NCBI GenBank assembly: GCA_006739055.1
Contig: AP019702.1
Coordinates: 3,869,388-3,933,387, forward strand
Origin: Allostella vacuolata
Lineage (GTDB): Bacteria > Pseudomonadota > Alphaproteobacteria > ATCC43930 > Allostellaceae
Direction: 5' to 3'
Length of the DNA stretch: 64,000 nucleotides
Shown here: positions 1-25,980 of the stretch, in pieces
Layout of the letters: every line of letters starts with the position of its first letter
Numbering within the stretch: position 1 is the first letter of the stretch
Notes under the pieces: generated by a model
The model's database searches: none
Told to the model about the DNA's origin: nothing
What the model saw: only the letters and a program-made list of their open reading frames with translations
Program-made: the position numbers and the translations under genes

Positions 1-1235
1 GCGACGGCGCCGGCAAGCAGCTCATGTCCTTCACCGACGCGATCACCGCGACCGGCGACAAGACCTTCGAATGGAAGCTGAAGGAGCCCTACGGCCTGGT
101 CATCGACACGCTGGCCAAGCAGGGCACCAGCCTGCCCTTCGTGATGCGCGAGAAGGAGGCCCTGGTCGACCCCTTCCAGCAGATCACCGAGATGGTCGGG
201 TCCGGCCCCTTCACCTTCAAGCGCGACGAGTGGGTGCCCGGCTCCAAGACCGTCTACGCCAAGTTCCAGGGCTATGTGCCGCGCAAGGAGCCGCCGTCCG
301 GCCATGCCGGCGGCAAGGTGGTGAAGGTCGACCGGGTCGAGTTTCTGTGGATGGCCGACCCGCAGACCGCCCAGTCCGCGCTCGTCGCGGGCGAGATCGA
401 CTACCTGGAGAACCCGCAGCTCGACTTCCTGCCGATGCTGGAATCCACCCCCGGCATCAAGCTGGAGACGCATCCGGCCCAGGGCACCATGGGCCTGATC
501 CAGCTCAACCACCTGCACCCGCCCTTCAACAACGTGAAGGCGCGCCAGGCCCTGCTGCACATCATCAACCCGCAGGACTTCCTCGACACCATCGCCGCCG
601 ACAAGAAGCTGCAGAAGCTCTGCTATTCGTACTATGGCTGCGGCGTGCCGATGGAGAGCGACGCCGGCGCCGAGCCGTACAAGGCCCGCAAGGACCTGGC
701 GAAGGCCGAGCAGCTGATGAAGGAGGCCGGCTACAAGGGCGAGCCGATCACCATCCTGCATGCGACCGACCACCAGTACATCAACCCGGCCAACCTGGTG
801 ATGATCCAGCAGCTGCGCCGGGCCTCGTTCCTGAAGCTCGACGTGCAGGCGATGGACTGGGGCACCGTGGTCTCGCGCCGGGCCAAGAAGGAGCCGCCGG
901 CCCAGGGCGGCTGGAACATCTTCATCACCGGGACCACGGTGCTGAGCTCGTCCAACCCGGTCACCAACACCTGGATCGGCATGAACTGCGAGCGGGCCAA
1001 TGTCGGCTGGCCGTGCAACGCGGGCGTCGAGGCGACGCGGCGCGCCTGGGGCCTGGCCCCGGACCTGGCCGCGCGCAAGGCACTGGCCGTCGACCTGTCG
1101 AAGCAGCTCTACGAGCAGGTGCCGTTCGTGCCCTTCGCCCAGTGGGTCAACCCGGTCGCCTATCGGTCGGACAAGATCTCGGGCGTGATCACCACCCCGT
1201 CGATTCCGCCGATGTGGAACATCGAGCGGAAGTGA
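1..1235 (+). CDS. SBP-1: family 5 ABC transporter substrate-binding protein (5' end outside window)
   Basis: This is the C-terminal part (about 410 residues) of a periplasmic solute receptor of the DppA/OppA-like SBP_bac_5 family. The reading frame is open from base 3, so the signal peptide and first ~120 residues lie upstream of the window. Family hallmarks shared with the copies downstream include MREKEALVDP, SGPFTFKRDEWVPGSK, GEIDYLENPQ and a closing MWNIE. Four cysteines conserved in the whole local family are present (CYSYYGC and CERANVGWPC). It ends in its own hairpin, so it is probably transcribed separately from SBP-2. The ligand is unknown; peptides or peptide-like compounds are the family norm. 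The family call is secure. Confidence 0.93.
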   Translation, partial: DGAGKQLMSFTDAITATGDKTFEWKLKEPYGLVIDTLAKQGTSLPFVMREKEALVDPFQQITEMVGSGPFTFKRDEWVPGSKTVYAKFQGYVPRKEPPSGHAGGKVVKVDRVEFLWMADPQTAQSALVAGEIDYLENPQLDFLPMLESTPGIKLETHPAQGTMGLIQLNHLHPPFNNVKARQALLHIINPQDFLDTIAADKKLQKLCYSYYGCGVPMESDAGAEPYKARKDLAKAEQLMKEAGYKGEPITILHATDHQYINPANLVMIQQLRRASFLKLDVQAMDWGTVVSRRAKKEPPAQGGWNIFITGTTVLSSSNPVTNTWIGMNCERANVGWPCNAGVEATRRAWGLAPDLAARKALAVDLSKQLYEQVPFVPFAQWVNPVAYRSDKISGVITTPSIPPMWNIERK

Positions 1236-1255
1236 CCGGCGCGGCATAGGCCGCC

Positions 1256-1289
1256 GGCCGGCCCCGGAAATCGCTTGCCGGGGCCGGCC
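1256..1289. terminator. Hairpin after SBP-1
   Basis: A perfect 12-bp inverted repeat (GGCCGGCCCCGG at 1256-1267, complement at 1278-1289) has a 10-nt loop and starts 20 nt after the SBP-1 stop codon. There is no T-tract, so it may act as a 3' stabiliser or a weak terminator. Confidence 0.55.
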
Positions 1290-1303
1290 CGCGGCATTCT
1301 ACT
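1275..1303 (+). promoter_or_regulatory. Predicted sigma70-type promoter of SBP-2
   Basis: TTGCCG (1275-1280) and TCTACT (1298-1303) are separated by 17 nt, about 80 nt upstream of the SBP-2 start. The same pattern occurs before SBP-3 and before the ABC core genes. The -35 overlaps the 3' arm of the preceding hairpin, which lowers confidence. Confidence 0.35.
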
Positions 1304-1384
1304 GGATGCCCCTGCGGCCCGGACAATGCCCCCGTCCCTCCGGATCAGAGGCGGCATGCCGAAGCCGCTCGTGTTGGAGGCATC

Positions 1385-2989
1385 ATGAAAACAATCCAGG
1401 AACGGCCGGCCCGCTGGCTCGCTGCCCTTCTTCTCGCCGGCGCCGCCACCCTTCCCGCGGCGCCCGCGCTCGCGCAGCAGAAGGTGCTGCGCGCCACCAT
1501 GCACGCCGACGTGCGCACCCTCGACCCGATCTGGACGACGCAGGTCATCGCCGGCATCCACGGCATGATGGTCTACGACACGCTCTTCGCGCCCGACGCC
1601 GAGCTGAAGAGCCAGCCGCAGATGGTGGACAAGTTCACCATCAGCGATGACAAGAAGACCTACACCTTCACCCTGCGCGACGGGCTGCGCTTCACCGACG
1701 GCACCCCGGTCACGCCCAAGGACGTCATCGCCTCGGTCAAGCGCTGGGCCGCGCGCGACAATGGCGGGCGGCAGCTCATGCTGTACACCGACGCCATCAA
1801 CGGCATCGACGACAAGACCTTCGAGTGGAAGCTGAAGGAGCCCTACAGCCTCATCATCGACCTGCTCGGCAAGCCGGACACCAGCATCCCCTTCATCATG
1901 CGCGAGAAGGAGGCCCTGACCGACCCGATGCAGCAGATCACCGAGGTGGTCGGCTCCGGGCCGTTCATGCTGAAGCGCGACGAGTGGGTGCCCGGCTCCA
2001 AGACCGTCTACGTCAAGAACCCGAACTACGTGCCGCGCAAGGAGCCGGCGTCCGGCCATGCCGGCGGCAAGGTGGTGAAGGTCGACCGCGTCGAGCTGCT
2101 GTGGATGCCCGACCCGCAGACCGCCCAGGCCGCCCTCGTCGCGGGCGAGATCGACTACCTGGAGAACCCGCAGCCGGACTTCCTGCCGATCCTGGAGAGC
2201 ACGCCCGGCGTCAAGCTGGTCACCCATCCGGCCCAGGGCACGCTCGGCATCATCCAGCTCAACCACCTGCACCCGCCCTTCAACAACGTGAAGGCGCGGC
2301 AGGCGATGCTGCACATCGTCAACAACCAGGACTTCCTCGACACCATCGCCGCCGACAAGCGGCTGCAGAAGCCCTGCTTCTCGTATTTCGGCTGCGGCAC
2401 GCCGATGGAGACCGATGCCGGCTCCGAGGCCTACAAGGCGCCCAAGGACTACAAGAAGGCCGAGCAGCTGTTCAAGGAGGCGGGCTACAAGGGCGAGCCG
2501 ATCACGCTCCTGCACGCCACCGACCACGCCTACATCAACCCGGCCAACCTCGTCCTGATCCAGCAGATGCGCAAGGCGGGCTTCCTCAAGCTCGACGTGC
2601 AGGCGATGGACTGGGGCACGGTCGTCTCCCGCCGCACCAAGAAGGAGCCGCCGGCCCAGGGCGGCTGGAACATCTTCATCACCGGCGGGTCGGCGCTCGG
2701 CGCCTCGGTGCCGCTCACCAACACCGCGCTGCCGATGGCCTGCGAGAAGTCGTGGTTCGGCTGGCCGTGCGACGCCGACTTCGAGAAGCTGCGCGGCAGC
2801 TGGGCACTCGGCGCCGACGTGGCGGCGCGCAAGCAGATCGCCGTCGAGATCAGCAAGGCCGCCTACCAGAAGGTGCCGTTCATCTCGTTCGGCCAGTGGA
2901 CCAACCCGGTCGCCTACCGCTCGGACAAGATCTCGGGCGTGATCGCGGTGCCGTCGGTGCCGCCGATGTGGAACATCGAGAAGAAGTAG
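1385..2989 (+). CDS. SBP-2: family 5 ABC transporter substrate-binding protein
   Basis: A 534-residue periplasmic solute receptor for a peptide/nickel-type ABC importer. The N-terminus has a basic stretch, a hydrophobic core and an ALAQ-type signal peptidase I site near residue 31. The mature protein begins with the local family signature MHADVRTLDPIWTTQ. The two-lobed SBP_bac_5 fold is implied by the full family length and by motifs such as LRDGLRFTDGTPVTPKD. GGAGG lies 5 nt before the ATG. The gene has its own hairpin terminator with a T-run, so it looks monocistronic. No ligand can be read from the sequence. Compared with other copies it carries ACEKSWFGWPC and GGSALGASVPL near the C-terminus, a region that varies between paralogs and may bear on specificity. 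Confidence 0.95.
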   Translation: MKTIQERPARWLAALLLAGAATLPAAPALAQQKVLRATMHADVRTLDPIWTTQVIAGIHGMMVYDTLFAPDAELKSQPQMVDKFTISDDKKTYTFTLRDGLRFTDGTPVTPKDVIASVKRWAARDNGGRQLMLYTDAINGIDDKTFEWKLKEPYSLIIDLLGKPDTSIPFIMREKEALTDPMQQITEVVGSGPFMLKRDEWVPGSKTVYVKNPNYVPRKEPASGHAGGKVVKVDRVELLWMPDPQTAQAALVAGEIDYLENPQPDFLPILESTPGVKLVTHPAQGTLGIIQLNHLHPPFNNVKARQAMLHIVNNQDFLDTIAADKRLQKPCFSYFGCGTPMETDAGSEAYKAPKDYKKAEQLFKEAGYKGEPITLLHATDHAYINPANLVLIQQMRKAGFLKLDVQAMDWGTVVSRRTKKEPPAQGGWNIFITGGSALGASVPLTNTALPMACEKSWFGWPCDADFEKLRGSWALGADVAARKQIAVEISKAAYQKVPFISFGQWTNPVAYRSDKISGVIAVPSVPPMWNIEKK

Positions 2990-2997
2990 CACCCGCA

Positions 2998-3034
2998 GCC
3001 ACCCGGGCGGATCGGCGCCCGGGTGGCCATTTTT
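2998..3034 (+). terminator. Rho-independent terminator of SBP-2
   Basis: A 12-bp GC-rich stem (2998-3009 with 3016-3027), a 6-nt loop and a following ATTTTT run form a textbook intrinsic terminator, 9 nt after the SBP-2 stop codon. Confidence 0.88.
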
Positions 3035-3036
3035 CC

Positions 3037-3066
3037 TTGCGATCGAAGCCCGATGACTCTTCTACT
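3037..3066 (+). promoter_or_regulatory. Predicted promoter of SBP-3
   Basis: TTGCGA (3037-3042), an 18-nt spacer and TCTACT (3061-3066) lie directly after the SBP-2 terminator. The pattern matches the candidates before SBP-2 and before the permease operon. Confidence 0.45.
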
Positions 3067-3131: not shown

Positions 3132-4742
3132 ATGACCTACCGCCCGACCCGATCGCGGCTGCCCGCCGCAGCCGCGCTCCTTGCCGGCGCGGCTTCGGCC
3201 ATGGCGCTCGCCACCATCGGCCAGCCGGCAGCGGCGCAGGAAAAGGTCCTGCGCGCCACCATGCATGCCGACGTGCGGTCGATCGACCCGGTCTGGACGA
3301 CGCAGACCATCGCCTCGATCCACGGCAACATGATCTACGACCAGCTCTTCAACCTCGACACCAATCTCCAGCCGCAGCCGCAGATGGTCGACAAGTGGAC
3401 CGTCAGCGAGGACAAGAAGACCTACGTCTTCACGCTCCGCGACGGGCTGAAGTTCCATGACGGCACCCCGGTCACGACCAAGGACGTGCTGCCGTCGATC
3501 AACCGCTGGGCGGCCCGGCGCAACGCCGGCAAGATCATGATGGGCTTCACGGAGTCCATTACCGCCAAGGACGACAAGACCTTCGAGTGGAAGCTGAAGG
3601 AGCCCTTCGGCCTCGTCATCGACACGCTGGCGCAGATCGGCGCCGTGTTCGTCATGCGCGAGAAGGAAGCGACGACGGACCCGATGCAGCAGATCAGCGA
3701 GGCGATCGGCTCGGGCCCGTTCATGATGAAGCGCGACGAGTGGGTGCCCGGCTCCAAGACCGTCTATACCAAGTTCAAGGACTACGTGCCGCGCAAGGAG
3801 GCCGCGTCGGGCCATGCCGGCGGCAAGGTGGTGAAGGTCGACCGGGTCGAGTTCGTCTGGATGCCCGACCCGCAGACGGCCCAGGCGGCCCTCGTCGCGG
3901 GCGAGATCGACTATCTGGAGAACCCGCAGCCCGACTTCCTGCCGATGCTGAAGAGCACCCCCGGGGTGAAGCTGATCACCCACCCGGCGCAGGGCACGAT
4001 GGGCATCATCCAGCTGAACCACCTGCACCCGCCCTTCAACAACGTGAAGGCGCGGCAGGCGATGCTCAACATCGTCCACATGCCGGACTATCTCGACACC
4101 ATCGTCGCCGACAAGAGCCTGCAGAAGGTCTGCTACTCGTATTTCGGTTGCAACGTGCCGATGGAGACGGACGCCGGCGCGGAGACCTACAAGGCCCCGC
4201 CCGACTACAAGAAGGCGGCCGAGCTGTTCAAGGAGGCCGGCTACAAGGGCGAGCCGATCACCATCCTGCACGCCACCGACCACGCCTACATCAACCCCTC
4301 GACGCTGATCCTGGCGCAGCAGATGCGCAAGGCCGGCCTCAACCTCGACCTGCAGGCGATGGACTGGGGCACGGTGGTCTCCCGCCGCACCAAGAAGGAG
4401 CTGCCGGCCCAGGGCGGCTGGAACATCTTCGTCACGGGCACCACCGTGCTGGGCTCGTCCTCGCCCATCTCCCACGTCTCGCTCGGCATGGGCTGCGAGA
4501 AGGCGTGGTTCGGCTGGCCGTGCGACGCCAAGATGGAAGAGCTGCGCCAGACCTGGAGCCTCACCCCGGAGATCGCCGACCGCAAGAAGCTCGCGGTCGA
4601 CATCTCCAAGCGCGCCTATGAGACGGTTCCCTACATCTCGTTCGCCCAGTGGGTGAACCCCGTCTCCTACCGCGAGGACCGGATCTCCGGCGTGATCCCG
4701 GTGCCGTCGGTCCCGGCGATGTGGAACATCGAGAAGAAGTAG
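3132..4742 (+). CDS. SBP-3: family 5 ABC transporter substrate-binding protein
   Basis: A 536-residue receptor of the same local family, with a long signal peptide ending near AAAQ at residue 36. The ATG at 3132 is preceded by GAGGAG at 6 nt and is preferred over the upstream in-frame TTG. It has the mature start MHADVRSIDPVWTTQ, HDGTPVTTKDVLPSINR and the four conserved cysteines (CYSYFGC, CEKAWFGWPC). Unlike most copies, it lacks the two residues before the VMREKEA motif (AQIGAVFVMREKEA), a gap shared with SBP-5 and the decayed copy. It converges on the aminotransferase gene, with a long hairpin between. The ligand is unknown. Confidence 0.95.
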   Translation: MTYRPTRSRLPAAAALLAGAASAMALATIGQPAAAQEKVLRATMHADVRSIDPVWTTQTIASIHGNMIYDQLFNLDTNLQPQPQMVDKWTVSEDKKTYVFTLRDGLKFHDGTPVTTKDVLPSINRWAARRNAGKIMMGFTESITAKDDKTFEWKLKEPFGLVIDTLAQIGAVFVMREKEATTDPMQQISEAIGSGPFMMKRDEWVPGSKTVYTKFKDYVPRKEAASGHAGGKVVKVDRVEFVWMPDPQTAQAALVAGEIDYLENPQPDFLPMLKSTPGVKLITHPAQGTMGIIQLNHLHPPFNNVKARQAMLNIVHMPDYLDTIVADKSLQKVCYSYFGCNVPMETDAGAETYKAPPDYKKAAELFKEAGYKGEPITILHATDHAYINPSTLILAQQMRKAGLNLDLQAMDWGTVVSRRTKKELPAQGGWNIFVTGTTVLGSSSPISHVSLGMGCEKAWFGWPCDAKMEELRQTWSLTPEIADRKKLAVDISKRAYETVPYISFAQWVNPVSYREDRISGVIPVPSVPAMWNIEKK

Positions 4743-4792: not shown

Positions 4793-6178
4793 CTATCGGA
4801 TCAACCCGTCCGCCCGGAGCACGCGCTCGTAGGCGGCGAGCGACCGTTCCAGCCGGTCCAGGATCTCCCGGCACTCGGCTTCCGTCGCGTTCAGCGGCGG
4901 GGCGATCGTCACCCAATGGCCGTAGCGGCCGCCCGAGGTCGGCCGGGCATAGACCATCAGGCCGTTGGCCAGGGCATGGTTGCGCAGAGCTTCGGTCGGT
5001 CGCGCATCGGCCGGCAGCATCGCCTTGCTGGCGCGGTCGGCCACGATCTCCACCGCCCAATAGAGGCCGATGCCGCGCACGTCGCCGACCAGCGGCGAGC
5101 GCTCCTGTAGCGCGCGCAGGCCGGCCTCGAGCTCGGCGCCGCGGACACGGCCCGCCTGGAGCAACTCGCCCGCCTCGATCTCGTCGAGCACCGCCAGCGC
5201 CACCGCGCAGGCGATCGGGTTGGCGTTGTAGGAGAAGGCCAGCTCGAAGCCCGAGGCATCGGCGAGCCGGTCGACCATGGCCGCCGGCGCCAACAGGGCG
5301 CCGATCGGCGCATGTCCGGCCCCCAGGCCCTTGGCGAGGACCACCAGGTCGGGCCGCGCGTCCGGCCAATGCTCCATGGCGAAGAAGGGTCCGGTCCGCC
5401 CGGTGCCGGTCACGATCTCGTCGAAGACCAGCAACACGCCATGGCGCGAGCAGATCTCGCGGACCGCCCGCATATAGCCGGGCGACGGGACGTTGGCGCC
5501 GCGCGAAACCCCGCCCACCGGCTCCATCACGAAGGCCAGCACACGCTCGGGCCCGAGCTCCCGGATCCGGGCTTCGAGCCGCCGGGCGCACTCCAGCTCA
5601 TGGTCCGCCGCCGATGGCCCCAGGGAGGGCCGATAGGGCATCGGCGCCGGTACGGCATGGGCGGTCACGGCGAAGCCGTCGTGGAAGGCCGAGCCCGACT
5701 GGTCGCCGCCGATGGCCGAGGTGGCGATGGTGCCGCCGTGATAGGACGGTTCCAGCACGATGATGGCCCGCCGGCTCGCGGCACCGGTCGCGACCGCGTG
5801 CTGGCGGGCGAACTGCAGCGCGCGCTCCATCGCCTCGCTGCCGCCGGAGGTGAAGGCCACGCGCTCGAACCCCGGCCCGGCCAGGCCCGCCAGGCGCCCC
5901 GCCAGTTCCAGGTTACGGGGATTGCGGGCCACCAGCGAGAAGGCGTAGTCGAGCGTTGCCGCCTGCCGGGCCATCGCCGCGACCAGCCGCGGATGGCAAT
6001 GGCCGAGGCAGGACACCATGGGACCGCCGGACGCATCGAGGTAGGCGTTGCCCGCCTCGTCCCACATGCGGATGCCGGATGCCCGAACGATCATCGGCAG
6101 GCGGACCGACGATGCACGGGCATAGAACCGGTCCTGGGTTCCACCGATGTCCAACGGCGCGGAAACGGAAACCTGCAT
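4793..6178 (-). CDS. Class III PLP-dependent aminotransferase
   Basis: A 461-residue aspartate-aminotransferase-fold enzyme of class III (GabT, omega-transaminase, glutamate-semialdehyde aminomutase group). It would move an amino group from an amine or amino acid to a keto acid in the cytoplasm. The cofactor-binding pattern is clear: TSGGSEAMERAL for the phosphate cup, FDEIVTGTGRTG with the Asp that contacts the pyridine nitrogen, and VLAKGLGAGHAPIGA with the Schiff-base lysine. The ATG at 6178 has GAGAGG 5 nt upstream and is preferred over the GTG two codons earlier. It lies 82 nt downstream of a MocR-type regulator gene on the same strand, the usual arrangement for a regulated aminotransferase. 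The substrate cannot be assigned. The gene interrupts the binding-protein array. Confidence 0.9.
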   Translation of the reverse strand: MQVSVSAPLDIGGTQDRFYARASSVRLPMIVRASGIRMWDEAGNAYLDASGGPMVSCLGHCHPRLVAAMARQAATLDYAFSLVARNPRNLELAGRLAGLAGPGFERVAFTSGGSEAMERALQFARQHAVATGAASRRAIIVLEPSYHGGTIATSAIGGDQSGSAFHDGFAVTAHAVPAPMPYRPSLGPSAADHELECARRLEARIRELGPERVLAFVMEPVGGVSRGANVPSPGYMRAVREICSRHGVLLVFDEIVTGTGRTGPFFAMEHWPDARPDLVVLAKGLGAGHAPIGALLAPAAMVDRLADASGFELAFSYNANPIACAVALAVLDEIEAGELLQAGRVRGAELEAGLRALQERSPLVGDVRGIGLYWAVEIVADRASKAMLPADARPTEALRNHALANGLMVYARPTSGGRYGHWVTIAPPLNATEAECREILDRLERSLAAYERVLRADGLIR

Positions 6179-6260: not shown

Positions 6261-7643
6261 TCAGACGACGCCCTCGTCCGCCGGTCCCTCGGCCAGCAGG
6301 CGAGCCACCGCCTCCACCCCGCGGCGCAGTTCTTCCCGGGTGGCCGGGTTTCCCAGCCCCAGGCGGATGGCGGGATCGCCGTCGCCGGCGACGGCGAAGG
6401 TGGCGGACGCCACGACCCGGACGCCGGCGCGCTCGGCCGCCGCCTGGAAGGCGGACGGCCGGAATCCGGGCGGCAGCCGGAGCCACAGATGCAGCCCGTC
6501 GGGCGACGATGCTGCGGCGCGCGCGCCCAGCGCCGAACGGGCGATCGCCTGCCGGGCCGCCACCTCGGCCCGCTGCCAGGCGAGCATCGCATCCGCCGAT
6601 CCGTCGTCGATCCACCGCGTCGCCAGCTCGGGCCCGAACGGCGGCGGCGACCAGCAGGACATGGCGACCGCGTTGCGCGCGGCGGTGGCCAGGCGTTCCG
6701 GGACATGCAGATAGCCGACGCGCAGCCACGGCGCGATCGCCTTGGACAGGCCGCCGACCAGCATGCAGTGCCCGGGCGCATGTTCGGCCAGGGGTGCCGG
6801 CCGGCTGGCCGGCAGGTGCCCGTAGACATCGTCCTCGATCACCATCAGCCCATGCCGGACGGAAACCGCGGCGACCTCGGCCCGCCGGGTGGCGGACATG
6901 GTCGCGGTGGTCGGGCTCTGCAGCGTCGGCATGAGATAGGCGACCCGGGCCCGGGTCGCCCGGCACGCCTGATCCAGCGCCTCCGGCAGCACCCCTTCGG
7001 CATCGACCGCCACGGGGTGCAGCGACAGCTGCAGATGGCGGGCGATCTGGCGCACCGGCGGGAAGGTATGGGGCTCGACCAGCACCGCGGCGCCGGGCAC
7101 CGCTGCGGCCATGAACGCCACCAGCAGGGCATGCTGGCCGCCGACGGTGACGAGGGTGCGGGCCGGGTCGGCGGCGAGGCCCAGCCGGGCGAGCCATCGG
7201 GCCCCCGCCTCGGCGTGGCGCGGGTCCGCCCCCGGCACGCCGCGGCCGAACCGGGCCGCGAGTCGGCCGTCCCGCGACAGCTCCTCCAGGGCTTCCGGCA
7301 ACCGCCGGTCGGCCGGCCCGGGCACCGGCAGGTTCAGGCCGAGATCGACCACCCCGGACGACGACGCCTGGAAATAGGAGGCGTCGCGGGCGGCCGCCCC
7401 GTCCCGACGGCGCACGAACGTGCCTCTCCCGCGCTCGCCTTCCAGCAGGCCGCGCCGCCGCGCCTCGTCATAGGCCCGGGTGACGGTGCCGAGCGACAGG
7501 CCCAGCGCGTGCGCCAGGGCGCGTTGCGGCGGCAGCGCGGCGCCCGGCGCCAGCGTCCCGTCCGCGACCGCGGCAGCCAGCGCATCCGCGATCCGATGGT
7601 ACCTCGTTCCCGGCCCGGAGATGTCCGGCAGCCATATTGTCAT
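6261..7643 (-). CDS. MocR-type (GntR/aminotransferase fusion) transcriptional regulator
   Basis: A 460-residue chimeric regulator. Residues ~10-75 form a GntR winged helix (PPQRALAHALGLSLGTVTRA, then GRGTFV at the wing). Residues ~115-455 form a class I aminotransferase-like domain that binds PLP and senses an amine-type effector. The domain retains the PLP lysine in GGLSKAIAPW and the IEDDVYG motif, so it should still form an internal aldimine. MocR proteins usually control a neighbouring aminotransferase or importer; here the class III aminotransferase lies directly downstream. The decayed SBP copy is divergent across a ~126-nt gap. The TTGT-N7-ACAA inverted repeat spanning the start codon could mediate autoregulation. 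Confidence 0.93.
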   Translation of the reverse strand: MTIWLPDISGPGTRYHRIADALAAAVADGTLAPGAALPPQRALAHALGLSLGTVTRAYDEARRRGLLEGERGRGTFVRRRDGAAARDASYFQASSSGVVDLGLNLPVPGPADRRLPEALEELSRDGRLAARFGRGVPGADPRHAEAGARWLARLGLAADPARTLVTVGGQHALLVAFMAAAVPGAAVLVEPHTFPPVRQIARHLQLSLHPVAVDAEGVLPEALDQACRATRARVAYLMPTLQSPTTATMSATRRAEVAAVSVRHGLMVIEDDVYGHLPASRPAPLAEHAPGHCMLVGGLSKAIAPWLRVGYLHVPERLATAARNAVAMSCWSPPPFGPELATRWIDDGSADAMLAWQRAEVAARQAIARSALGARAAASSPDGLHLWLRLPPGFRPSAFQAAAERAGVRVVASATFAVAGDGDPAIRLGLGNPATREELRRGVEAVARLLAEGPADEGVV

Positions 7644-7769
7644 AGATACAACAGGAACACGGTCGCACGTGGCCCGTCAAATGTACTGGCCGAGCGCTAT
7701 CGGCTTGATGGGTCCGACGGATCGCGTCATGTCAGCGCTCTCTCGCCGCGTGCGGACTGTCCGGACCGC

Positions 7770-8474
7770 CATTGGTCGGCAGCCGGACCGTCAGCGACGA
7801 CAAGGAGACCTATGTCTTCACGCTGCGCGAGGGCCCCACCTTCTACGACGGCATCCCGATCCGCAGCGCCGACGCCATCGCCTCGTTCCAGCGCCGGGCG
7901 GCCCGGCGCAATCCCGGCAAGATCCTGCTCGACTTCACCGATTGCATCACCGCGCTGGACGACCGGCGCTTCGAATGGAAGCTGAAGCAGCCCTATGGCC
8001 TGGTCATCGACACGCTGGCCCAGACCGGCGCCACCTACGTCATGCGCGAGAAGGAGGCCAGGACCGACCCCTTCCAGCAGATCCAGGAGGTGGTCGGCTC
8101 CGGCCCGTTCGTCTTCAAGCGCGACGAGTGGAGCCGCCGGCCCAGGGCGGCTGGAACATCTTCCTCACCACCGCCCCGGTCCTCGGCCTGTCCAACCCCC
8201 TGACCCACAGCCGGATCGGCATGGGTTGCGAGAAGGCCAATGTCGGCTGGCCGTGCAACGCGGAGTTCGAGGACGTCCGCCGGTCCTGGGGGCTGGCCCA
8301 GACCGTCGACGAGCGCAAGGCGATCGCGGTCGACCTGTCGAGCGGATCTACGACCGGGTGCCGCTCGTGCCCTTCGCCCAGTGGCTGGACCCGGTCGCCT
8401 GCCGCGAGGACAAGATCTCCGGCATCCTCGCGGTGCCGTCGGTGCCGCCGAAGTGGAGCGTTGAGATAAGGTAG
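7770..8474 (+). pseudogene. SBP-4: decayed copy of the family 5 substrate-binding protein
   Basis: This remnant matches SBP-5 best but cannot make a receptor. Homology begins abruptly near 7770, so the promoter, signal peptide and about 85 N-terminal residues are gone. At 8130-8131 it jumps from KRDEW straight to EPPAQGGWNIF, which equals loss of 658 nt relative to SBP-5 and shifts the frame; GG is shared at both deletion ends. At about 8340 one A is missing from a codon that reads AAG in SBP-5, giving a second frameshift. The tail then resumes in the original frame (VPLVPFAQW) and ends in an atypical WSVEIR. A tandem duplicate of SBP-5 that has since decayed is the simplest reading. Confidence 0.93.
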
Positions 8475-14204: not shown

Positions 14205-14225
14205 CGGCCGGGGGCGCAGGAGGAC

Positions 14226-17200: not shown

Positions 17201-17297
17201 CTATATCGTGCCGGTCGCCTACATGTACCTGTCGCGCGGCCGCAGGCGCCCGGCCGAGGAGCCGGTGGCCGCCCCCGGCCTGCAGCCCGCGGAATAA
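14226..17297 (+). CDS. RND efflux pump, inner-membrane transporter (AcrB/MexB-like)
   Basis: A 1023-residue proton-driven exporter of the hydrophobe/amphiphile efflux family. It has TM1 at ~10-30, a large periplasmic loop, a TM2-6 cluster (~335-470), TM7 (~525-545), a second loop, and TM8-12 (~860-1005). The proton-relay residues are present: paired aspartates D399-D400 in LVVDDAIVV (TM4) and K914 in LITKHGILI (TM10). AGGAGG lies just before the ATG. It forms a two-gene operon with the adaptor. No TolC-type outer-membrane gene is present, so a channel encoded elsewhere must be used. The HAE1 family call is firm; substrates are unknown. Confidence 0.95.
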   Translation: MDFKFFIERPVFSTVLSLIVILLGIVSFVQLTVREYPNIDEPVVSVRTNYLGASAEIIETQVTQVLEDSIAGIEGIETIISSSQPELSNITVRFRLNIDPDVAASDVRDRVGRVRGRLPDEIEEPIIAKVEADAQAIIYIAFTSDRQPTIEISDYADRFVKDRLQTLPGVSEVRIFGERRYAMRIWLDRARLAAYGLTVQDVEGALGQQNVEIPSGRIESLDREFTVLSRTGLRTPEEFARIVVKDAGGFPVRISDVGRVELGPTDNRRTTRFSGNTSVILGIVKQATANPIEVSHGLREMLPDLVASLPAGMNATVSYDKSVFIDRSIAAVYTTVTEAVILVVLVILLFLRSFRATLIPLVTIPVSLIGACTLLFAFGFSINTLTLLAMVLAIGLVVDDAIVVLENVHRHMEAGMKPVAAAIRGIREISGPVVAMTLTLAAVYAPVAFTPGRTGRLFTEFALTLAGAVVVSGFVALTLTPMMCSKFLSHHGHHGRIYNLLERGFEGMTRAYRGSLAMALRVRPLIVLIGLGVAGSSVLLFGNLRSELAPIEDQGVIFTAGTTPEGSTIDYTSRYGLELEKVLGEVPEIRHQFVIAGSRSVNELISFATLRPWETRERRQQDLVAELQPKLRAIPGARLSANNPGAFGESARNKPIEFVLQTSESYLALQGYVDRLLDAAGSYPGFINLDSDLRLNKPQIEVEVNRERVADMGASVVNVGRTLESLLGGRQVTRFNQNGEQYDVMVQVEPDGRRTAEDVRDIYVRGHGGAMIQLSNLIDVRETISPKELNRFNQLRSATITANLAPGFSMGEGLAVLENATREHLPPGTRFDYGGQSRAFKEAGSSLYFIFALALVFIFLVLSAQFESFVDPFIIMLTVPLSITGALLALYLTGGTLNVYSQIGLVTLIGLITKHGILIVQFANQLQLDGRTVREAVTEAAVLRLRPILMTTGAMVLGAVPLAIATGAGAESRRAIGWVIVGGMSFGTVLTLYIVPVAYMYLSRGRRRPAEEPVAAPGLQPAE

Positions 17298-17377: not shown

Positions 17378-18967
17378 ATGAGAGCGACGCTCGCCGCAGC
17401 GTTCCTGGCGACCACCGCGCTGACCGGACTGGCTGCCGCGCCGGCCCTGGCGCAGCAGAAGGTGATCCGCGCCACCATGCACGCCGACGTGCGCACCCTC
17501 GACCCGGTCTGGACGACGCAGACGATCGCGTCGATCCACGGCAACATGATCTTCGATCGCCTGTTCGCCAGCGACAACAACCTCAATCCGCAGCCGCAGA
17601 TGGTCGATACCTGGACCGTCAGCGAGGACAAGAAGGTCTACACCTTCACGCTGCGCGACGGCCTCAAGTTCCATGACGGCACCCCCGTCACCACCCGCGA
17701 CGTCATCGCCTCGATGAAGCGCTGGGGCGTGCGCGACGGCGCCGGCAAGATCCTGTTCGGCTATACCGACGACCTGGTGGCGAAGGATGCCAAGACCTTC
17801 GAGTGGCGCCTGAAGGAGCCCTATGGCCTGGTCATCGACTCCCTGGCCAAGACTGGCACCAGCCTGCCCGCGATCATGCGCGAGAAGGAGGCCCTGACCG
17901 ACCCCTTCCAGCAGGTGAAGGAGATGGTCGGCTCCGGCCCGTTCGTCTTCAAGGCGGACGAGTGGGTGCCGGGCTCGAAGACGATCTACACCAAGTTCCA
18001 GGACTATGTGCCGCGCAAGGAGCCGCCGTCGGGCCACGCCGGCGGCAAGGTGGTGAAGGTCGACCGCGTCGAGTTCGTGTGGCTGCCCGACCCGCAGACC
18101 CAGCAGTCGGCGCTGGTGGCCGGCGAGATCGACTTCCTGGAAGCGCCCCAGGTCGACTTCCTGCCGATCCTCGAAGCCACCCCGGACGTGAAGCTGTTCA
18201 ACCACCCGGCTTCCGGCTCGATGGGCGTGATCGGCATCAACCACCTGCACCCGCCCTTCAACAACGTGAAGGCCCGGCAGGCGCTGTTCCACATCCTGCA
18301 CATGCCGGACTTCCTCAACACCTTCATCCCCGACAAGAAGCTGCAGCGCCTCTGCTACTCCTATTTCGGCTGCGGCACGCCGATGGAGACCGATGCAGGG
18401 TCCGAGGTCTACCGGGCCCCGCCCGACTACAAGAAGGCCGAGCAGCTCTTCAAGGAAGCCGGCTACAAGGGCGAGCCGATCACCATCCTGCACGCCACCG
18501 ACCACTGGTACATCAACCCGGCCAACCTGGTGATGATCCAGCAACTGCGGAAGGCGGGCTTCCTCAAGCTCGACGTCGCCTCCATGGACTGGGGTTCGGT
18601 CGTCGCCCGCCGCTCGAAGAAGGAGCCGCCGGCCCAGGGCGGCTGGAACCTCTACATCACCGGCACCTCGATCGTGACCTCGGCCAACCCGATGACCCAT
18701 GTCGCCATCGGCATGGGCTGCGAGAAGGCATGGTTCGGCTGGCCGTGCGATTCGCAGTTCGAGCAGCTGCGCCGCGACTGGGTGGCCGCACCGGACCTGG
18801 CCAAGCGCAAGGAAGTGGCAGTCCAGCTGTCGAAGCGGGCCTATGACCAGGTGCCCTACATCTCCTTCGCGCAGTGGAGCAACCCGTCCGCCTACCGCTC
18901 CGACCGCCTGTCGGGGATCGTCGAGGCGCCGAGCTTCCCGATCATGTGGAACATCGAGAAGAAGTAG
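17378..18967 (+). CDS. SBP-7: family 5 ABC transporter substrate-binding protein
   Basis: A 529-residue receptor with a signal peptide ending ALAQ near residue 25. The ATG at 17378 has AGGAG 7 nt upstream and is preferred over the TTG one codon earlier. With SBP-8 it forms a subgroup marked by FLEAPQVDFLP (YLENPQ in the others), a Ser-rich HPASGSMG segment instead of HPAQGT, HMPDFLNTFIPDKKLQRLC and HWYINPANL. These differences fall in the ligand-facing half of the protein, so this pair may bind a different ligand class. It keeps the four cysteines. A strong hairpin follows. Confidence 0.95.
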   Translation: MRATLAAAFLATTALTGLAAAPALAQQKVIRATMHADVRTLDPVWTTQTIASIHGNMIFDRLFASDNNLNPQPQMVDTWTVSEDKKVYTFTLRDGLKFHDGTPVTTRDVIASMKRWGVRDGAGKILFGYTDDLVAKDAKTFEWRLKEPYGLVIDSLAKTGTSLPAIMREKEALTDPFQQVKEMVGSGPFVFKADEWVPGSKTIYTKFQDYVPRKEPPSGHAGGKVVKVDRVEFVWLPDPQTQQSALVAGEIDFLEAPQVDFLPILEATPDVKLFNHPASGSMGVIGINHLHPPFNNVKARQALFHILHMPDFLNTFIPDKKLQRLCYSYFGCGTPMETDAGSEVYRAPPDYKKAEQLFKEAGYKGEPITILHATDHWYINPANLVMIQQLRKAGFLKLDVASMDWGSVVARRSKKEPPAQGGWNLYITGTSIVTSANPMTHVAIGMGCEKAWFGWPCDSQFEQLRRDWVAAPDLAKRKEVAVQLSKRAYDQVPYISFAQWSNPSAYRSDRLSGIVEAPSFPIMWNIEKK

Positions 18968-19251: not shown

Positions 19252-20838
19252 ATGAGAGCAATGCTCGCAGCGGCGCTTCTGGCCGGCACTGCGCTGGCCG
19301 GCACCAGCACCGCGGCACTCGCCCAGGACAAGGTCCTGCGCGCCACCATGCACGCCGACGTGCGCACCCTCGACCCGATGTGGACCACCCAGGTCATCGC
19401 GTCGATCCACGGCAACATGATCTATGACCGGCTGTTCGCCAGCGACGAGAAGCTGGAGCCGCAGCCGCAGATGGTCGACCGGTGGACCGTCAGCGAGGAC
19501 AGGAAAGTCTACACCCTCACGCTGCGCGACGGCCTCAGGTTCCATGACGGCACCCCGGTCACCACCCGCGACGTCATCGCCTCGATGAAGCGCTGGGGCG
19601 TGCGCGACGTCGCCGGCAAGTCGCTCTTCGCCTTCACCGAGGACCTGGTGGCGAAGGACGACAAGACCTTCGAGTGGCGCCTGAAGGAGCCCTATGGCCT
19701 GGTCATCGACACGCTGGCCAAGCCGACCTCCAGCCTGCCGGCCGTCATGCGCGAGAAGGAGGCCCTGACCGACCCCTTCCAGCAGGTGCAGGAGGCGATC
19801 GGCTCCGGTCCGTTCGTCTTCAAGCGCGACGAGTGGTCGCCCGGCTCCAAGACCGTCTACACCAAGTTCCAGGACTACGTGCCGCGCCAGGAGGCGGCTT
19901 CGGGCCATGCCGGCGGCAAGGTCGCCAAGGTCGACCGGGTCGAGTTCGTCTGGCTGCCCGACCCGCAGACCCAGCAGTCGGCGCTCGTCGCTGGCGAGAT
20001 CGACTTCCTGGAAGCGCCCCAGGTCGACTTCCTGCCGATCCTCGAAGCCACCCCCGGGGTCAAGCTGTTCGGCCACCCGGCATCCGGCTCGATGGGCATC
20101 ATCCAGCTCAACCACCTGCACCCGCCCTTCAACAACGTGAAGGCGCGGCAGGCGATGTTCCACATCCTGCACATGCCGGACTTCCTCAACACCTTCATCC
20201 CCGACAAGAAGCTGCAGCGCCTCTGCTACTCCTATTTCGGCTGCGACACGCCGATGGAGACCGAGGCCGGCTCCGAGGTCTACAAGGCACCGCCCGACTA
20301 CAGGAAGGCCGAGCAGCTCTTCAAGGAAGCGGGCTACAAGGGCGAGCCGATCACCATCCTGCACGCCACCGACCACTGGTACATCAACCCGGCCAACCTG
20401 GTGATGATCCAGCAGCTGCGGAAGGCGGGCTTCCTCAAGCTCGACGTCCAGGCGATGGACTGGGGCTCGGTCGTCTCGCGCCGCACCAAGAAGGAGCCGC
20501 CGGCCCAGGGCGGCTGGAACATCTTCATCACCGGCACCTCGATCGTCGGCTCGGCCAACCCGATGACCAACGTGTCGATCGGCATGGGCTGCGAGAAGGC
20601 GTGGTTCGGCTGGCCCTGCGACGCCGGGTTCGAGGACCTGCGCAGGAAGTGGGCGACCGCCCCCGACATCGGGAAGCGGCGCGAGATCGCGGTCGAGCTG
20701 TCGAAGTTGGCCTACGAGAAGGTGCCGTTCGTGTCGTTCGCGCAGTGGAACAACCCGTCCGCCTACCGCTCCGACCGCCTGAGCGGCGTCCTGCAGACGC
20801 CGAGCCTGCCGCCGATGTGGAACATCGAGAAGAAGTGA
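19252..20838 (+). CDS. SBP-8: family 5 ABC transporter substrate-binding protein
   Basis: A 528-residue receptor, the last of the array and nearest the ABC core. The ATG at 19252 is chosen over a much longer open frame because it begins a signal peptide (MRAMLAAALLAGTALAG, cleavage near ALAQ) and has GGGGAG eight bases upstream. It is the sister of SBP-7: a stretch of about 85 nt near 20161 is identical to SBP-7 near 18292 apart from its ends. It has CYSYFGC and CEKAWFGWPC, with Gln for Lys in the otherwise constant VPRKE motif (VPRQE). A strong hairpin separates it from the permease operon. Confidence 0.95.
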   Translation: MRAMLAAALLAGTALAGTSTAALAQDKVLRATMHADVRTLDPMWTTQVIASIHGNMIYDRLFASDEKLEPQPQMVDRWTVSEDRKVYTLTLRDGLRFHDGTPVTTRDVIASMKRWGVRDVAGKSLFAFTEDLVAKDDKTFEWRLKEPYGLVIDTLAKPTSSLPAVMREKEALTDPFQQVQEAIGSGPFVFKRDEWSPGSKTVYTKFQDYVPRQEAASGHAGGKVAKVDRVEFVWLPDPQTQQSALVAGEIDFLEAPQVDFLPILEATPGVKLFGHPASGSMGIIQLNHLHPPFNNVKARQAMFHILHMPDFLNTFIPDKKLQRLCYSYFGCDTPMETEAGSEVYKAPPDYRKAEQLFKEAGYKGEPITILHATDHWYINPANLVMIQQLRKAGFLKLDVQAMDWGSVVSRRTKKEPPAQGGWNIFITGTSIVGSANPMTNVSIGMGCEKAWFGWPCDAGFEDLRRKWATAPDIGKRREIAVELSKLAYEKVPFVSFAQWNNPSAYRSDRLSGVLQTPSLPPMWNIEKK

Positions 20839-21266: not shown

Positions 21267-22208
21267 ATGACCGCCTACATCATCCGCCGACTGTTCGCGA
21301 CGATCCCCGTCATGGTGGTCGTGGCACTGTTCGTGTTCCTGCTCCTGCACCTGACGCCGGGCGACCCGGCGGCGATCATCGCCGGCGACGACGCGACCCC
21401 AGTCGAGATCGAGGGCGTGCGCCGCCGCCTCGGCCTCGACCGGCCGATCTGGGAGCAGTTCGGCATCTATGCCTGGGGCCTGCTCCAGGGCGATCTCGGC
21501 ACCTCGATCTTTTCCAACCTGCCCGTGACCACGCTGGTCGCCCAGCGGCTCGAGCCGACGGTCGTGCTGGCCCTGTCGACCCTGCTGGTGGCGGTGATCT
21601 GCGCCATCCCGCTCGGCGTGGTCGCCGCCTGGAAGGCCCGCACCTTCATCGACCGCATCGTCATGGGCTTCTCGGTGCTGGGCTTCGCCGTGCCGGTGTT
21701 CCTGGTCGGCTACGTGCTGATCTACATCTTCTCGATCGAGCTGCGCTGGCTGCCGGTGCAGGGCTACCGCCCGCTGGCGCAAGGGATCGACCAGACCTTC
21801 CGCTCGGTGGTGCTGCCGGCGGTGGCGCTCGGCACCACCTACATGGCGCTGATCGCCCGCATCACCCGCGCCTCCATGCTGGAGGTGCTGTCGGAGGATT
21901 ATATCCGCACCGCCCACGCCAAGGGCGTCACCACCAAGTCCGTGCTGCTGCGCCACGCCCTGAAGAACGCCGCGGTGCCGATCGTCACCGTGATCGGCCT
22001 CGGCATGGCCGCCCTCATCTCCGGCGTCGTCATCACCGAGACGGTGTTCAACATCCCCGGCCTCGGCCGGCTCACGGTGGACGCGATCCTGAAGCGCGAC
22101 TACCCGATCATCCAGGGGCTGATCATCATCTTTGCCGGCACCAAGGTGCTGATCAACCTGATGATCGACATCAGCTACACCTTCTTCGATCCACGAATCC
22201 GGTACTAG
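21267..22208 (+). CDS. Peptide/nickel-type ABC transporter permease (DppB-like)
   Basis: A 313-residue inner-membrane subunit with six predicted helices. TM1 at ~9-30 is followed by the family motif LTPGDPAAII, and the cytoplasmic EAA loop near residues 205-225 reads EDYIRTAHAKG, the site that docks the ATPase. The C-terminal FFDPRIRY is typical of DppB proteins. It pairs with the DppC-like gene 13 nt downstream to form the translocation pore. It is the only permease pair in the 25-kb receptor array, so it probably takes substrate from several of SBP-1 to SBP-8. Confidence 0.95.
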   Translation: MTAYIIRRLFATIPVMVVVALFVFLLLHLTPGDPAAIIAGDDATPVEIEGVRRRLGLDRPIWEQFGIYAWGLLQGDLGTSIFSNLPVTTLVAQRLEPTVVLALSTLLVAVICAIPLGVVAAWKARTFIDRIVMGFSVLGFAVPVFLVGYVLIYIFSIELRWLPVQGYRPLAQGIDQTFRSVVLPAVALGTTYMALIARITRASMLEVLSEDYIRTAHAKGVTTKSVLLRHALKNAAVPIVTVIGLGMAALISGVVITETVFNIPGLGRLTVDAILKRDYPIIQGLIIIFAGTKVLINLMIDISYTFFDPRIRY

Positions 22209-22221: not shown

Positions 22222-23097
22222 ATGGCCACCACCACCGCTGGCGCCGCCGCCCCCCGCGTCCGATCGCGGAAGGGCCCGATCGCCTGGGTCCGGCGCAACC
22301 CGACCATCACCGTCGGGGCCGCGATCCTGCTCGTCCTCGTCGTCCTGGCCGCCATCGCGCCGATGATCGCCGAGGACCCGCTCAGCTTCGAGCCGTCCAA
22401 CCGCCTGAAGCGCCCGTCCGAGACCTTCTGGTTCGGCACCGACCAGTTCGGCCGCGACGTCTACAGCCGCGTCGTCTACGGCACCCGCATCTCGCTCGCG
22501 GTCGGCATCAGCGTCGCGGTGGTCGCGACCTTCGTCGGCCTCGTCATCGGCGTGCTGTGCGGCTTCTACAAGCGGGTCGACGCCATCGTCATGCGCATCA
22601 TGGACGGGCTGATGTCGATCCCGTCGATCCTGCTGGCGATCGCCCTCATCACGCTCATGAAGGCGAGCCTGACCATCGTCATCATCGCCATCAGCATCCC
22701 CGAGATCCCCCGCGTGGTGCGGCTGGTGCGCTCGGTGGTGCTGTCCGTGCGCGAGATGCCCTATATCGAGGCAGCGGTCGCCGCCGGAACGCGCAACCTC
22801 GTCATCATGTACCGGCACATCCTGCCGAACACCCTGGCGCCGCTGATCGTCCAGGCGACCTATGTGTGCGCGTCCGCGATCCTGACCGAGGCCGGCCTCT
22901 CCTTCCTCGGCGCCGGCACCCCGCCCGAGATCCCGAGCTGGGGCAACATCATCTCGCTCGGCCGCACCTTCTTCCAGATCTCGCCCTGGATCATCTTCTT
23001 CCCCGGCGTCTGCCTCGCCATCACCGTGCTGGCCATCAACCTCGTCGGCGACGGCCTGCGCGACACGCTGGACCCGCGCATCGCGCGGCGCATGTAA
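22222..23097 (+). CDS. Peptide/nickel-type ABC transporter permease (DppC-like)
   Basis: A 291-residue inner-membrane subunit of the DppC type. TM1 lies at ~30-52, and a periplasmic segment then holds the diagnostic FGTDQFGRDVYSRVVYGTR. Further helices follow, with an EAA loop around EAAVAAGTRNLVIMYRHILP and an ending near LDPRIARRM. GGGAGG lies 8 nt before the ATG. It is translated between the DppB-like permease and the fused ATPase, 17 nt from the latter. Confidence 0.95.
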   Translation: MATTTAGAAAPRVRSRKGPIAWVRRNPTITVGAAILLVLVVLAAIAPMIAEDPLSFEPSNRLKRPSETFWFGTDQFGRDVYSRVVYGTRISLAVGISVAVVATFVGLVIGVLCGFYKRVDAIVMRIMDGLMSIPSILLAIALITLMKASLTIVIIAISIPEIPRVVRLVRSVVLSVREMPYIEAAVAAGTRNLVIMYRHILPNTLAPLIVQATYVCASAILTEAGLSFLGAGTPPEIPSWGNIISLGRTFFQISPWIIFFPGVCLAITVLAINLVGDGLRDTLDPRIARRM

Positions 23098-23114
23098 GGG
23101 ACGGAAGCCGAACC

Positions 23115-24968
<1,854 letters not shown>

Positions 24969-24975
24969 TCGCGAC

Positions 24976-25980
24976 ATGAGCCAATGCGACACCGGCCGCT
25001 GGCCGCGCTGGGACAGCCCCGGCGCGGCCGGCTGGGCGGCCCCGGCGCTGGAGGCCGCGGCCGCCCATGCCACCACCATCGACACCGCCGCCCTGCTGGT
25101 CGTCGCCGGCGGCCGGGTGGTGTGGAGCCACGGCCGGGTCGCCGACCGCTTCAACATCCACTCGATCCGCAAGAGCATCCTGTCCGCCCTGATCGGCATC
25201 CACGAGGCCGAGGGCCGCATCGACCTGGAGGCGTCGATGGCCAAGCTTGGCATCGACGACAAGCTCGGCCTGGGCGACCGCGAGAAGCTGGCGACGGTGC
25301 TCGACCTCTTGTGCGCGCGGTCGGGCATCTACCACCCGAGCGGCTACGAGTCGCCCTGGATGCTGTCGATCAAGCCGGCCCGCCACAGCGCCGGGCCGGG
25401 CACCGTCTGGTGCTACAACAACTGGGACTTCAACGCGCTTGGCACCATCTTCCGGCAGGCGACCGGGGCCGACATCTTCGCCGACTTCCAGGCCCGGATC
25501 GCCCAGCCGACCGGCATGGAGGATTTCCGGCCGGAGACGGACGGCGCCTATCTCGACCTGCCGGATTCCGTTCACCCGGCCTATCCGTTCCGCATGTCGG
25601 CACGCGATCTCGCCCGCTTCGGCCAGCTCTTCCTGGAGGATGGCTGCCACGGCGGCCGGCGCCTGCTGCCCGAGGGCTGGGTCGAGGCGAGCACCCTGCC
25701 CGTCTCCGACGCCGGCCACAACGGCGCCTATGGCTACATGTGGTGGGTGGCGCGCCAGGGCGTCTTCTACCCCCACGTCCGGGTCCCGGACGGCACCTAC
25801 GCCGCCCGCGGCGCCGGCGGCCACGTCGTGCTGGTGCTGCCGGCGCTCGACGCCGTCATCGTCCACCGCGTCGACACCGACCAGCCCGGCCGCGCCGTCA
25901 CCGGCGCCCAGTTCGGCCGGCTGCTGCGACTGATCCTGAAGGCGGCGCCGGTCCCTGTCAGGCCCCCCGCTTTTCGCTGA
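24976..25980 (+). CDS. Serine hydrolase of the beta-lactamase/penicillin-binding-protein family
   Basis: A 334-residue class C beta-lactamase-fold hydrolase. The active-site SxxK tetrad reads SIRK (nucleophile Ser in IHSIRKSILSAL, about residue 55), the second motif YNN follows in WCYNNWDFNALG, and a GAGGH segment near the C-terminus stands where the KTG box normally lies. No signal peptide is visible, so it should act in the cytoplasm on imported material, for example as a peptidase, amidase or esterase. It starts 7 nt after the ATPase stop codon and is surely co-transcribed, which suggests it processes what the importer brings in. Its 3' end overlaps the antitoxin gene on the other strand by 23 bp. 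A resistance beta-lactamase is unlikely without export. Confidence 0.85.
   Translation: MSQCDTGRWPRWDSPGAAGWAAPALEAAAAHATTIDTAALLVVAGGRVVWSHGRVADRFNIHSIRKSILSALIGIHEAEGRIDLEASMAKLGIDDKLGLGDREKLATVLDLLCARSGIYHPSGYESPWMLSIKPARHSAGPGTVWCYNNWDFNALGTIFRQATGADIFADFQARIAQPTGMEDFRPETDGAYLDLPDSVHPAYPFRMSARDLARFGQLFLEDGCHGGRRLLPEGWVEASTLPVSDAGHNGAYGYMWWVARQGVFYPHVRVPDGTYAARGAGGHVVLVLPALDAVIVHRVDTDQPGRAVTGAQFGRLLRLILKAAPVPVRPPAFR

What the first reader, a model, noticed from the sequence alone, without database searches (positions are those of the whole stretch)
1..25980. One ABC importer core with eight tandem receptor genes
Seven coding copies and one broken copy of the same SBP_bac_5 subfamily occupy about 21 kb upstream of a single permease pair, a fused ATPase and a hydrolase. 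Peptide importers normally have one receptor per core. The copies differ mainly in C-terminal segments near TGTTVLGSSNP-type loops and in the YLENPQ/FLEAPQ region, suggesting different ligands feeding one pore. This looks like a modular receptor-expansion system and is the strongest candidate here for undescribed biology.
Basis: partly seen in the sequence, partly recalled or inferred. Interest (0 to 1): 0.75.

Follow-up and report, generated by a model that had tools for sequence, protein, structure and literature searches.

The report
Seven receptors sharing one peptide importer
A star-shaped soil bacterium keeps seven related capture proteins beside a single importer and has also multiplied a related set of peptide-cutting enzymes; several receptors sharing one pore is known elsewhere, but a receptor set and an enzyme set that may have grown together is worth testing.

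Summary
In Stella vacuolata (genome length match) seven intact SBP_bac_5 receptors and one decayed copy lie upstream of one DppB-DppC-fused DppDF core and a beta-lactamase-fold hydrolase; unrelated genes interrupt the row. The receptors form one clade with one dispersed copy. No spare cognate core was found: 62 receptors, 32 OppB-type permeases, and the nearest paralogous cores have their own receptors. Receptor lineages are shared between Stella species. One pore with several receptors is known (Pseudomonas DppA1-5, Borrelia Opp). New is that the receptors multiplied alongside an M81 (MlrC-like) peptidase subfamily linked to this importer: 3-7 members in 5 of 5 multi-receptor genomes, 0-2 in 17 of 17 single-receptor ones by tree. 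The contrast fades with a wider family border, and only two independent expansions support it. Ligands are unknown. New variant of a known kind.

The parts
1..1235 (+). SBP1, SBP_bac_5 receptor (gene starts before the window, at -372)
   Evidence: group A of the tree
1385..2989 (+). SBP2 receptor (group B, present in all four Stella genomes examined)
2998..3027 (+). terminator-like hairpin between SBP2 and SBP3 (12 pairs, 11 of them G-C, then T-rich)
   Evidence: a consensus match only
3132..4742 (+). SBP3 receptor (group C)
4793..6067 (-). class-III aminotransferase interrupting the array
   Evidence: not called inside the arrays of S. humosa and ATCC 35155
6261..7643 (-). MocR-type regulator (closest NCBIfam model EhuR, below its cut-off)
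7766..8465 (+). decayed SBP copy in three frames, first 75 residues and an inner stretch missing, closest to SBP4 among the receptors compared
8564..10156 (+). SBP4 receptor (group D)
10287..11204 (-). DHDPS-family enzyme gene
11405..12994 (+). SBP5 receptor, without a clear ortholog among the receptors of the other three Stella genomes
13110..14204 (+). HlyD-type membrane fusion protein
   Evidence: same place in S. humosa and ATCC 35155
14226..17297 (+). RND efflux permease
17378..18967 (+). SBP6 receptor (group E)
   Evidence: AlphaFold2 model, mean pLDDT 90.6
18659..18709 (+). pocket-loop segment of SBP6 (residues 428-444) where lineage-specific fixed sites peak
19252..20838 (+). SBP7 receptor (group F)
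21267..22208 (+). DppB-type permease, the only core beside the array
22222..23097 (+). DppC-type permease
23115..24968 (+). fused DppD-DppF ATPase (GsiA-like), in place of the split pair seen in relatives
24976..25980 (+). beta-lactamase-fold hydrolase (SxxK and YxN motifs present)

Best explanation
The locus is a peptide/amide importer in which seven (plus one dispersed) periplasmic receptors take turns docking on one DppBC pore driven by one ATPase. Each receptor captures a different member of a family of small peptide-like molecules, and in the cytoplasm M81 (MlrC-like) metallopeptidases cleave them. Shown from sequence: one receptor clade, one cognate core, separate receptor lineages kept under purifying selection, concentration of lineage-specific residues in a pocket loop, loss of the DppA dipeptide anchors, and linkage of an M81 subfamily to this importer with multiplication of that subfamily in the two lineages whose receptors multiplied. 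Inferred: that all receptors dock on this core, that ligands differ, and that M81 enzymes act on the imported ligands.
For: One clade of receptors. 62 receptors against 32 OppB-type genes in the fetched loci; 45 receptors assigned to 30 cores, 17 orphan receptors, 2 cores without an assigned receptor, neither close to this core by tree. The permease tree mirrors the receptor tree: B3890 with B2280 (98/90), then B1165 (100/99). Receptor groups B and E occur in all four Stella genomes, A, C and F in three, D in two. dN/dS is 0.15-0.24 for seven S. vacuolata/S. humosa receptor pairs. The loop aligns with D436 of DppA, and R383 is also absent. M81: Marinimicrococcus (3), all 19 high-scoring Stella genes and the high-scoring gene of 14 single-receptor genomes lie in one clade (100/99). 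By that tree 5 of 5 multi-receptor genomes have 3 or more members and 0 of 17 single-receptor genomes do. The Stella genes form their own clade (100/99) and so do the Marinimicrococcus genes (100/100), so each lineage multiplied them itself. The S. vacuolata row of seven M81 genes and the S. humosa row of four lie about 6 kb from a dispersed receptor of this clade.
Against: No ligand or docking data. Only two independent expansions (Stella, Marinimicrococcus), so the p values overstate the evidence. The M81 contrast depends on the family border: 3 of 17 single-receptor genomes have two members of the clade, and with the next wider clade 9 of 17 have two or more and 5 of 17 three or more (p 0.12 and 0.0096). 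In Stella the M81 rows are not in the array locus; in 3 of the 14 single-receptor genomes with a high-scoring M81 it sits beside a sister-type receptor, and in 3 on another contig. M81 genes beside the core in Bordetella and Achromobacter, and the second M81 in three betaproteobacterial MAGs, fall outside the clade. dS is compressed, being about 0.3-0.4 even between paralogs, so dN/dS is rough. The loop alignment to DppA is at about 20% identity.
Confidence: 0.65

Rival explanations
1. Dosage and redundancy: the copies bind the same ligand and are kept for capture capacity or for expression under different conditions.
For: Paralogs remain 68-84% identical to SBP6. No upstream motif stood clearly above shuffles and a hairpin separates SBP2 from SBP3, so separate regulation is possible.
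Against: Separate lineages persist with fixed pocket-loop differences, and an enzyme subfamily multiplied too, with the border caveat.
Confidence: 0.22
2. Receptors of the array partly serve other cores, such as the sister cores at 1165 kb and 2280 kb, so the 'one core' picture is an artefact of position.
For: 17 receptors of this genome have no nearby core, so action at a distance must occur for some of them if they serve transport.
Against: Receptor and permease trees match, and each sister core has its own receptors.
Confidence: 0.1
3. Some receptors are sensors (for chemotaxis or signalling) rather than transport receptors.
For: General knowledge that some SBPs have dual roles; no test here.
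Against: Clustering with a core, and no sensor kinase or chemoreceptor among the genes named inside the array.
Confidence: 0.03

Closest known systems
Pseudomonas aeruginosa DppA1-A5 with DppBCDF (PMC4206461 passages; PMC12728205 abstract and one section)
   Same: Several paralogous family-5 receptors near one dppBCDF, among a regulator, a dipeptidase and a porin gene, and one dispersed receptor; distinct substrate profiles shown there.
   Different: The Gly-Asp-Asn pocket motif and DppA anchors are absent here; seven clustered receptors rather than four; an M81 peptidase subfamily multiplied as well; fused ATPase.
Borrelia burgdorferi Opp with five oligopeptide-binding proteins (PMC5736914, abstract read)
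   Same: Several divergent receptors feed a shared transporter; they are independently regulated there.
   Different: The abstract gives two heterodimeric permeases; spirochaete. An M81 link was not looked for.
Escherichia coli DppABCDF (PMC12136057, passages read)
   Same: DppB/DppC/DppD/DppF architecture and receptor fold (Foldseek TM 0.77 to 1dpp_A).
   Different: One receptor; dipeptide anchors R383/D436 are not conserved in the array; DppB scoop residues E41/R42 read D/D here.
8vdx, solute-binding protein of Bordetella bronchiseptica RB50
   Same: Closest solved structure by sequence (E 7e-109) and fold (TM 0.90, 36% identity).
   Different: The outputs seen give no ligand, so it does not assign one.
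MlrC of microcystin-degrading sphingomonads (M81; PMC12474180, passages read)
   Same: M81 family; there proposed to act in the cytoplasm on an imported tetrapeptide.
   Different: The Stella and relative genes form a subfamily tied to this importer; substrate unknown. MlrC itself was not placed in my trees.

Membership tests
SBP_bac_5 (Pfam PF00496) receptors | domain over the curated cut-off | tested here: met
   all seven intact genes and the decayed copy
Multi-receptor Dpp importer (P. aeruginosa type) | several paralogous receptors clustered with one BCDF core | tested here: met
Multi-receptor Dpp importer (P. aeruginosa type) | no other cognate core for the receptors in the genome | tested here: met
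   rests on trees and position
Multi-receptor Dpp importer (P. aeruginosa type) | Gly-Asp-Asn pocket motif | tested here: not met
Multi-receptor Dpp importer (P. aeruginosa type) | all receptors dock on the one core, with distinct ligand profiles | not testable with these tools
   needs binding and uptake assays
E. coli-type dipeptide importer | DppA R383 and D436 anchors | tested here: not met
   Thr, and Ser, Gly or Thr, at the aligned columns in all seven; alignment at about 20% identity
E. coli-type dipeptide importer | NCBIfam DppA or GsiB equivalog cut-off | tested here: not met
   SBP2 and SBP4 only: GsiB 110.8 and 105.7 bits against cut-off 594; DppA 45.2 and 50.3 against 1005
M81 metallopeptidase (MlrC-like) | PF07364 over cut-off, MlrC_C domain | tested here: met
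   PF07364: all seven genes of the S. vacuolata row. PF07171 was tested on M81 genes of relatives and one other S. vacuolata gene, not on the seven

The most novel reading that the evidence does not exclude
Receptor and enzyme arrays form one modular import-and-digest system: each receptor lineage delivers one modified peptide through a shared pore to its own M81 peptidase, and new substrates are added by duplicating a receptor together with a peptidase while the pore stays single and even the motor can be exchanged. (Probability lowered from a first 0.35 after the wider M81 tree.)
Probability: 0.28. Interest if true: 0.68.

Novelty: new variant of a known kind. Interest (0 to 1): 0.48.

Why it matters
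If the receptor set and the enzyme set grew together, the genome offers candidate receptor-enzyme pairs around one pore. One could then ask directly how receptor specificity, docking and downstream digestion evolve separately, and it would point to the chemistry of a peptidase family for which the searches here listed little beyond microcystin work. It would also give substrates to receptors that match no curated NCBI equivalog at its cut-off (two of seven tested).

Tried and rejected
Assembly artefact: rejected. The genome paper (PMC6687932, whole text) reports a circular hybrid assembly, and arrays recur in S. humosa, ATCC 35155 and, on two contigs, MAG SJ646.

Stella receptors as a strict clade: the free tree nests the single-receptor relatives among them, but holding the Stella receptors together is not rejected (p-AU 0.27; the cut SJ646 row and the S1164 outgroup were left out there), so the order of events is open.

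Shared motif upstream of the seven receptors, the dispersed receptor, DppB and the first M81 gene: nothing convincing. The best 10-mers were in 6 of 10 regions, against 4-5 in five shuffles.

YLENPQ/FLEAPQ as a specificity site: 0 of 10 columns met the criterion.

Complementary loss of the R42-D436 salt bridge as evidence for this core: dropped, because none of the 32 permeases of the genome has R at that position.

M81 counts by a bit score line: the 800-bit line was drawn after seeing the table. Searches added 25 further M81 genes of relatives (600-863 bits in the main) and two of ATCC 35155 to the tree. Four of those under 800 bits fell inside the clade, joined at 87/69. All three borders are reported.

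Earlier slips mended on checking: a first count had the named loop one column off (corrected), and the decayed copy was first taken for the middle of the protein only (one search shows otherwise).

Pocket mapping on atomic coordinates was not possible: no coordinates are given out and pdb_via was absent.

Prior report of an M81-importer co-expansion: five searches of the paper library listed none by title and abstract start; subscription journals are largely missing there.

Full report
Where it is. The window is 3,869,388-3,933,387 of a single-contig genome of 5,834,761 bases. That length is given for Stella vacuolata ATCC 43931 (AP019702) in PMC6687932, whose text I read; G001 (5,832,650) and G002 (5,339,096) match S. 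humosa and Stella sp. ATCC 35155. G003 has contigs of the lengths of MAG SJ646. A paper seen only in a search listing renames the genus Allostella.

What is there. Seven intact SBP_bac_5 receptor genes and one decayed copy precede DppB, DppC, a fused DppDF ATPase and a beta-lactamase-fold hydrolase. The core genes and hydrolase are 7-17 bases apart, whereas receptors are separated by 142-428 bases or by other genes, so the array is a cluster rather than one simple operon. A terminator-like hairpin follows SBP2. Of the interrupting genes only the RND pump pair is also inside the arrays of S. humosa and ATCC 35155. The decayed copy lies in three frames, lacks its first 75 residues and an inner stretch, and is 85-86% identical to SBP4 in its two longer pieces. 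It lies where S. humosa has an intact receptor (a5) between its group C and D receptors.

Receptors against cores. The genome holds 62 full receptors and the decayed one. In the fetched neighbourhoods I found 32 OppB-type permease genes (30 by Pfam PF19300); 45 receptors could be assigned to 30 of them and 17 had no nearby core. Two cores had no assigned receptor. One (1269 kb) belongs by tree to a group whose receptors include an orphan about 5 kb away on the other strand; the other (5404 kb) is a distant type. The permease tree places the array core with the cores at 2280 kb and 1165 kb (98/90, 100/99), as the receptor tree does, and each of those has its own receptors (two and one). A second array, six tandem receptors with one core, lies at 616-631 kb and forms a clade with one dispersed receptor.

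History. Receptors scoring over 1000 bits with the Stella profile were found in 4 of 4 Stella genomes and in none of the other 39 genomes of the order; 4 of 383 non-Stella genomes sampled from the class had one (three candidates scored per genome). Named relatives came from one scan of genome contigs with two motifs taken from the Stella receptors, so arrays with other motifs could have been missed. The tree gives receptor groups shared between Stella species and lying in the same order along the chromosome, so the array predates these species; SBP5 has no clear ortholog, and each species has its own gains and losses. Marinimicrococcus flavescens has a separate array of five receptors (100/100 as one group) beside a core whose DppB is 76% identical.

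Are the receptors different? Between S. vacuolata and S. humosa, seven receptor pairs have dN/dS of 0.15-0.24, so each looks kept, with the caveat that dS is compressed. Among six receptor groups (20 sequences; SBP5, the two dispersed copies, G1_a3, G1_a5 and the cut SJ646 row left out), 294 of 503 columns vary and 30 are fixed within every group but differ between groups. The densest 15-column stretch is 430-444 of SBP6 with 6. This loop aligns with Asp436 of E. [quoted passage not shown] Neither residue is present in any of the seven receptors, so ordinary DppA-type dipeptide binding is unlikely. The AlphaFold2 model of SBP6 (mean pLDDT 90.6) has a family-5 binding-protein fold, nearest to 8vdx.

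The enzymes. In several relatives M81 metallopeptidases, and in some an amidase, sit beside the receptor or core. S. vacuolata has 19 M81 genes, seven of them in one row at 4,373,916-4,384,209, about 6 kb from the dispersed receptor of this clade; S. humosa has four in a row at a similar distance from its dispersed receptor. A tree of 45 M81 proteins put 17 Stella row genes, three of Marinimicrococcus and one each of eight single-receptor relatives into one clade (100/100). Outside it were the 12 other S. vacuolata genes, the core-linked genes of Bordetella and Achromobacter, and a second M81 of three betaproteobacterial MAGs. Many His, Glu and Asp positions are invariant in the family. I then searched 22 genomes with both profiles, which were built from these same families. 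Receptors of the array type: 8, 9, 4, 5 plus one cut at a contig end, and 5 in the five multi-receptor genomes; one in each of 17 others (one of these in two pieces, one cut). M81 over 800 bits: 7, 4, 5, 3 and 3, against one in 14 and none in 3 of the 17.

That bit line was drawn after the fact, so I fetched the next 19 matches (596-763 bits), the six high-scoring ones not yet in the tree and the ATCC 35155 pair, and built a tree of 72. All 19 high-scoring Stella genes are one clade (100/99), the three of Marinimicrococcus another (100/100), and the clade uniting them with the high-scoring genes of the single-receptor genomes (100/99) also takes in four lower-scoring genes. By this tree the single-receptor genomes have 0 (2), 1 (12) or 2 (3) members, against 3-7 in the five others. 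Three or more occurs in 5 of 5 against 0 of 17 (p 4e-5), two or more in 5 of 5 against 3 of 17 (p 0.002). With the next wider clade the contrast shrinks to 5 of 5 against 5 of 17 for three or more, and 9 of 17 for two or more (p 0.0096 and 0.12). Four of the five genomes are one genus, so there are two independent events, not five. Of the 14 single-receptor genomes with a high-scoring M81, 8 have it within 10 kb of the array-type receptor, 3 beside a sister-type receptor and 3 on another contig.

The motor. The split DppD and DppF of SJ646 are about 81-82% identical to those of a Rubrivivax MAG and 71-75% to those of two other relatives. The fused DppDF of S. vacuolata, which S. humosa and ATCC 35155 share at 93-97%, is only about 60% (N half) and 52% (C half) identical to them, no closer than to paralogous ATPases of its own genome. 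The simplest reading is that the ATPase was replaced in these three genomes while the permeases and receptors stayed; no tree was built.

How it most likely works. Receptors with different pocket loops load one DppBC pore; ligands are small peptide-like amides; M81 enzymes, which show no signal peptide by eye, cut them inside, as PMC12474180 proposes for MlrC and an imported tetrapeptide (passages). The sister cores have gamma-glutamyltranspeptidase genes nearby instead, and ATCC 35155 has a gene of the AAT (penicillin acyl-transferase) family between its last receptor and the core; both fit unusual amide substrates. Docking, ligands and enzyme substrates are inferred.

Known and new. Multi-receptor importers are known: P. 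aeruginosa PA14 has DppA1-A4 near dppBCDF among other genes and DppA5 elsewhere (PMC4206461, passages), with distinct profiles (PMC12728205, abstract and one section); Borrelia has five binding proteins (PMC5736914, abstract). The Stella array is larger and differs in its ligand site, its ATPase and the multiplied peptidases. I rate it a new variant of a known kind.

Noticed in passing
G000:C1:616259-630860 (L006, L012): Second receptor array: six tandem SBP_bac_5 genes with one DppBCDF core, one clade with dispersed receptor S5502, which is itself followed by an M81 gene.
   Followed up: partly
L084:1916-12209 (G000:C1:4373916-4384209): Row of seven M81 metallopeptidase genes with a SelA-like PLP enzyme gene and a PF02441 flavoprotein gene beside it.
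   Followed up: yes
window 23115-24968: Fused ATPase stands where SJ646 and other relatives have a split DppD/DppF pair.
   Followed up: partly
window 13110-17297: RND efflux pair inside the receptor array, in the same place in S. humosa and ATCC 35155.
   Followed up: no
L049:12814-16649, L050:1363-4910, L052:624-4003: Pair of large genes divergent from the array, with weak ATP-grasp matches in S. humosa and ATCC 35155 (the L052 pair was not scanned); not called beside the S. vacuolata array.
   Followed up: no
L041 and L009 (genome 1162066-1163784 and 2285646-2287184): Gamma-glutamyltranspeptidase genes near the sister cores at 1165 and 2280 kb.
   Followed up: no
window -27912..-15509 (L014, L001): Two very large called genes (1997 and 1586 aa) with similar starts, left of the window.
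   Followed up: no
L050:16691-17515: In ATCC 35155 a gene of the AAT (penicillin acyl-transferase) family occupies the SBP7 position.
   Followed up: no
L114 (G002:C1:1425600-1429300): Two further M81 genes of the Stella clade in ATCC 35155, away from its main row of three.
   Followed up: partly
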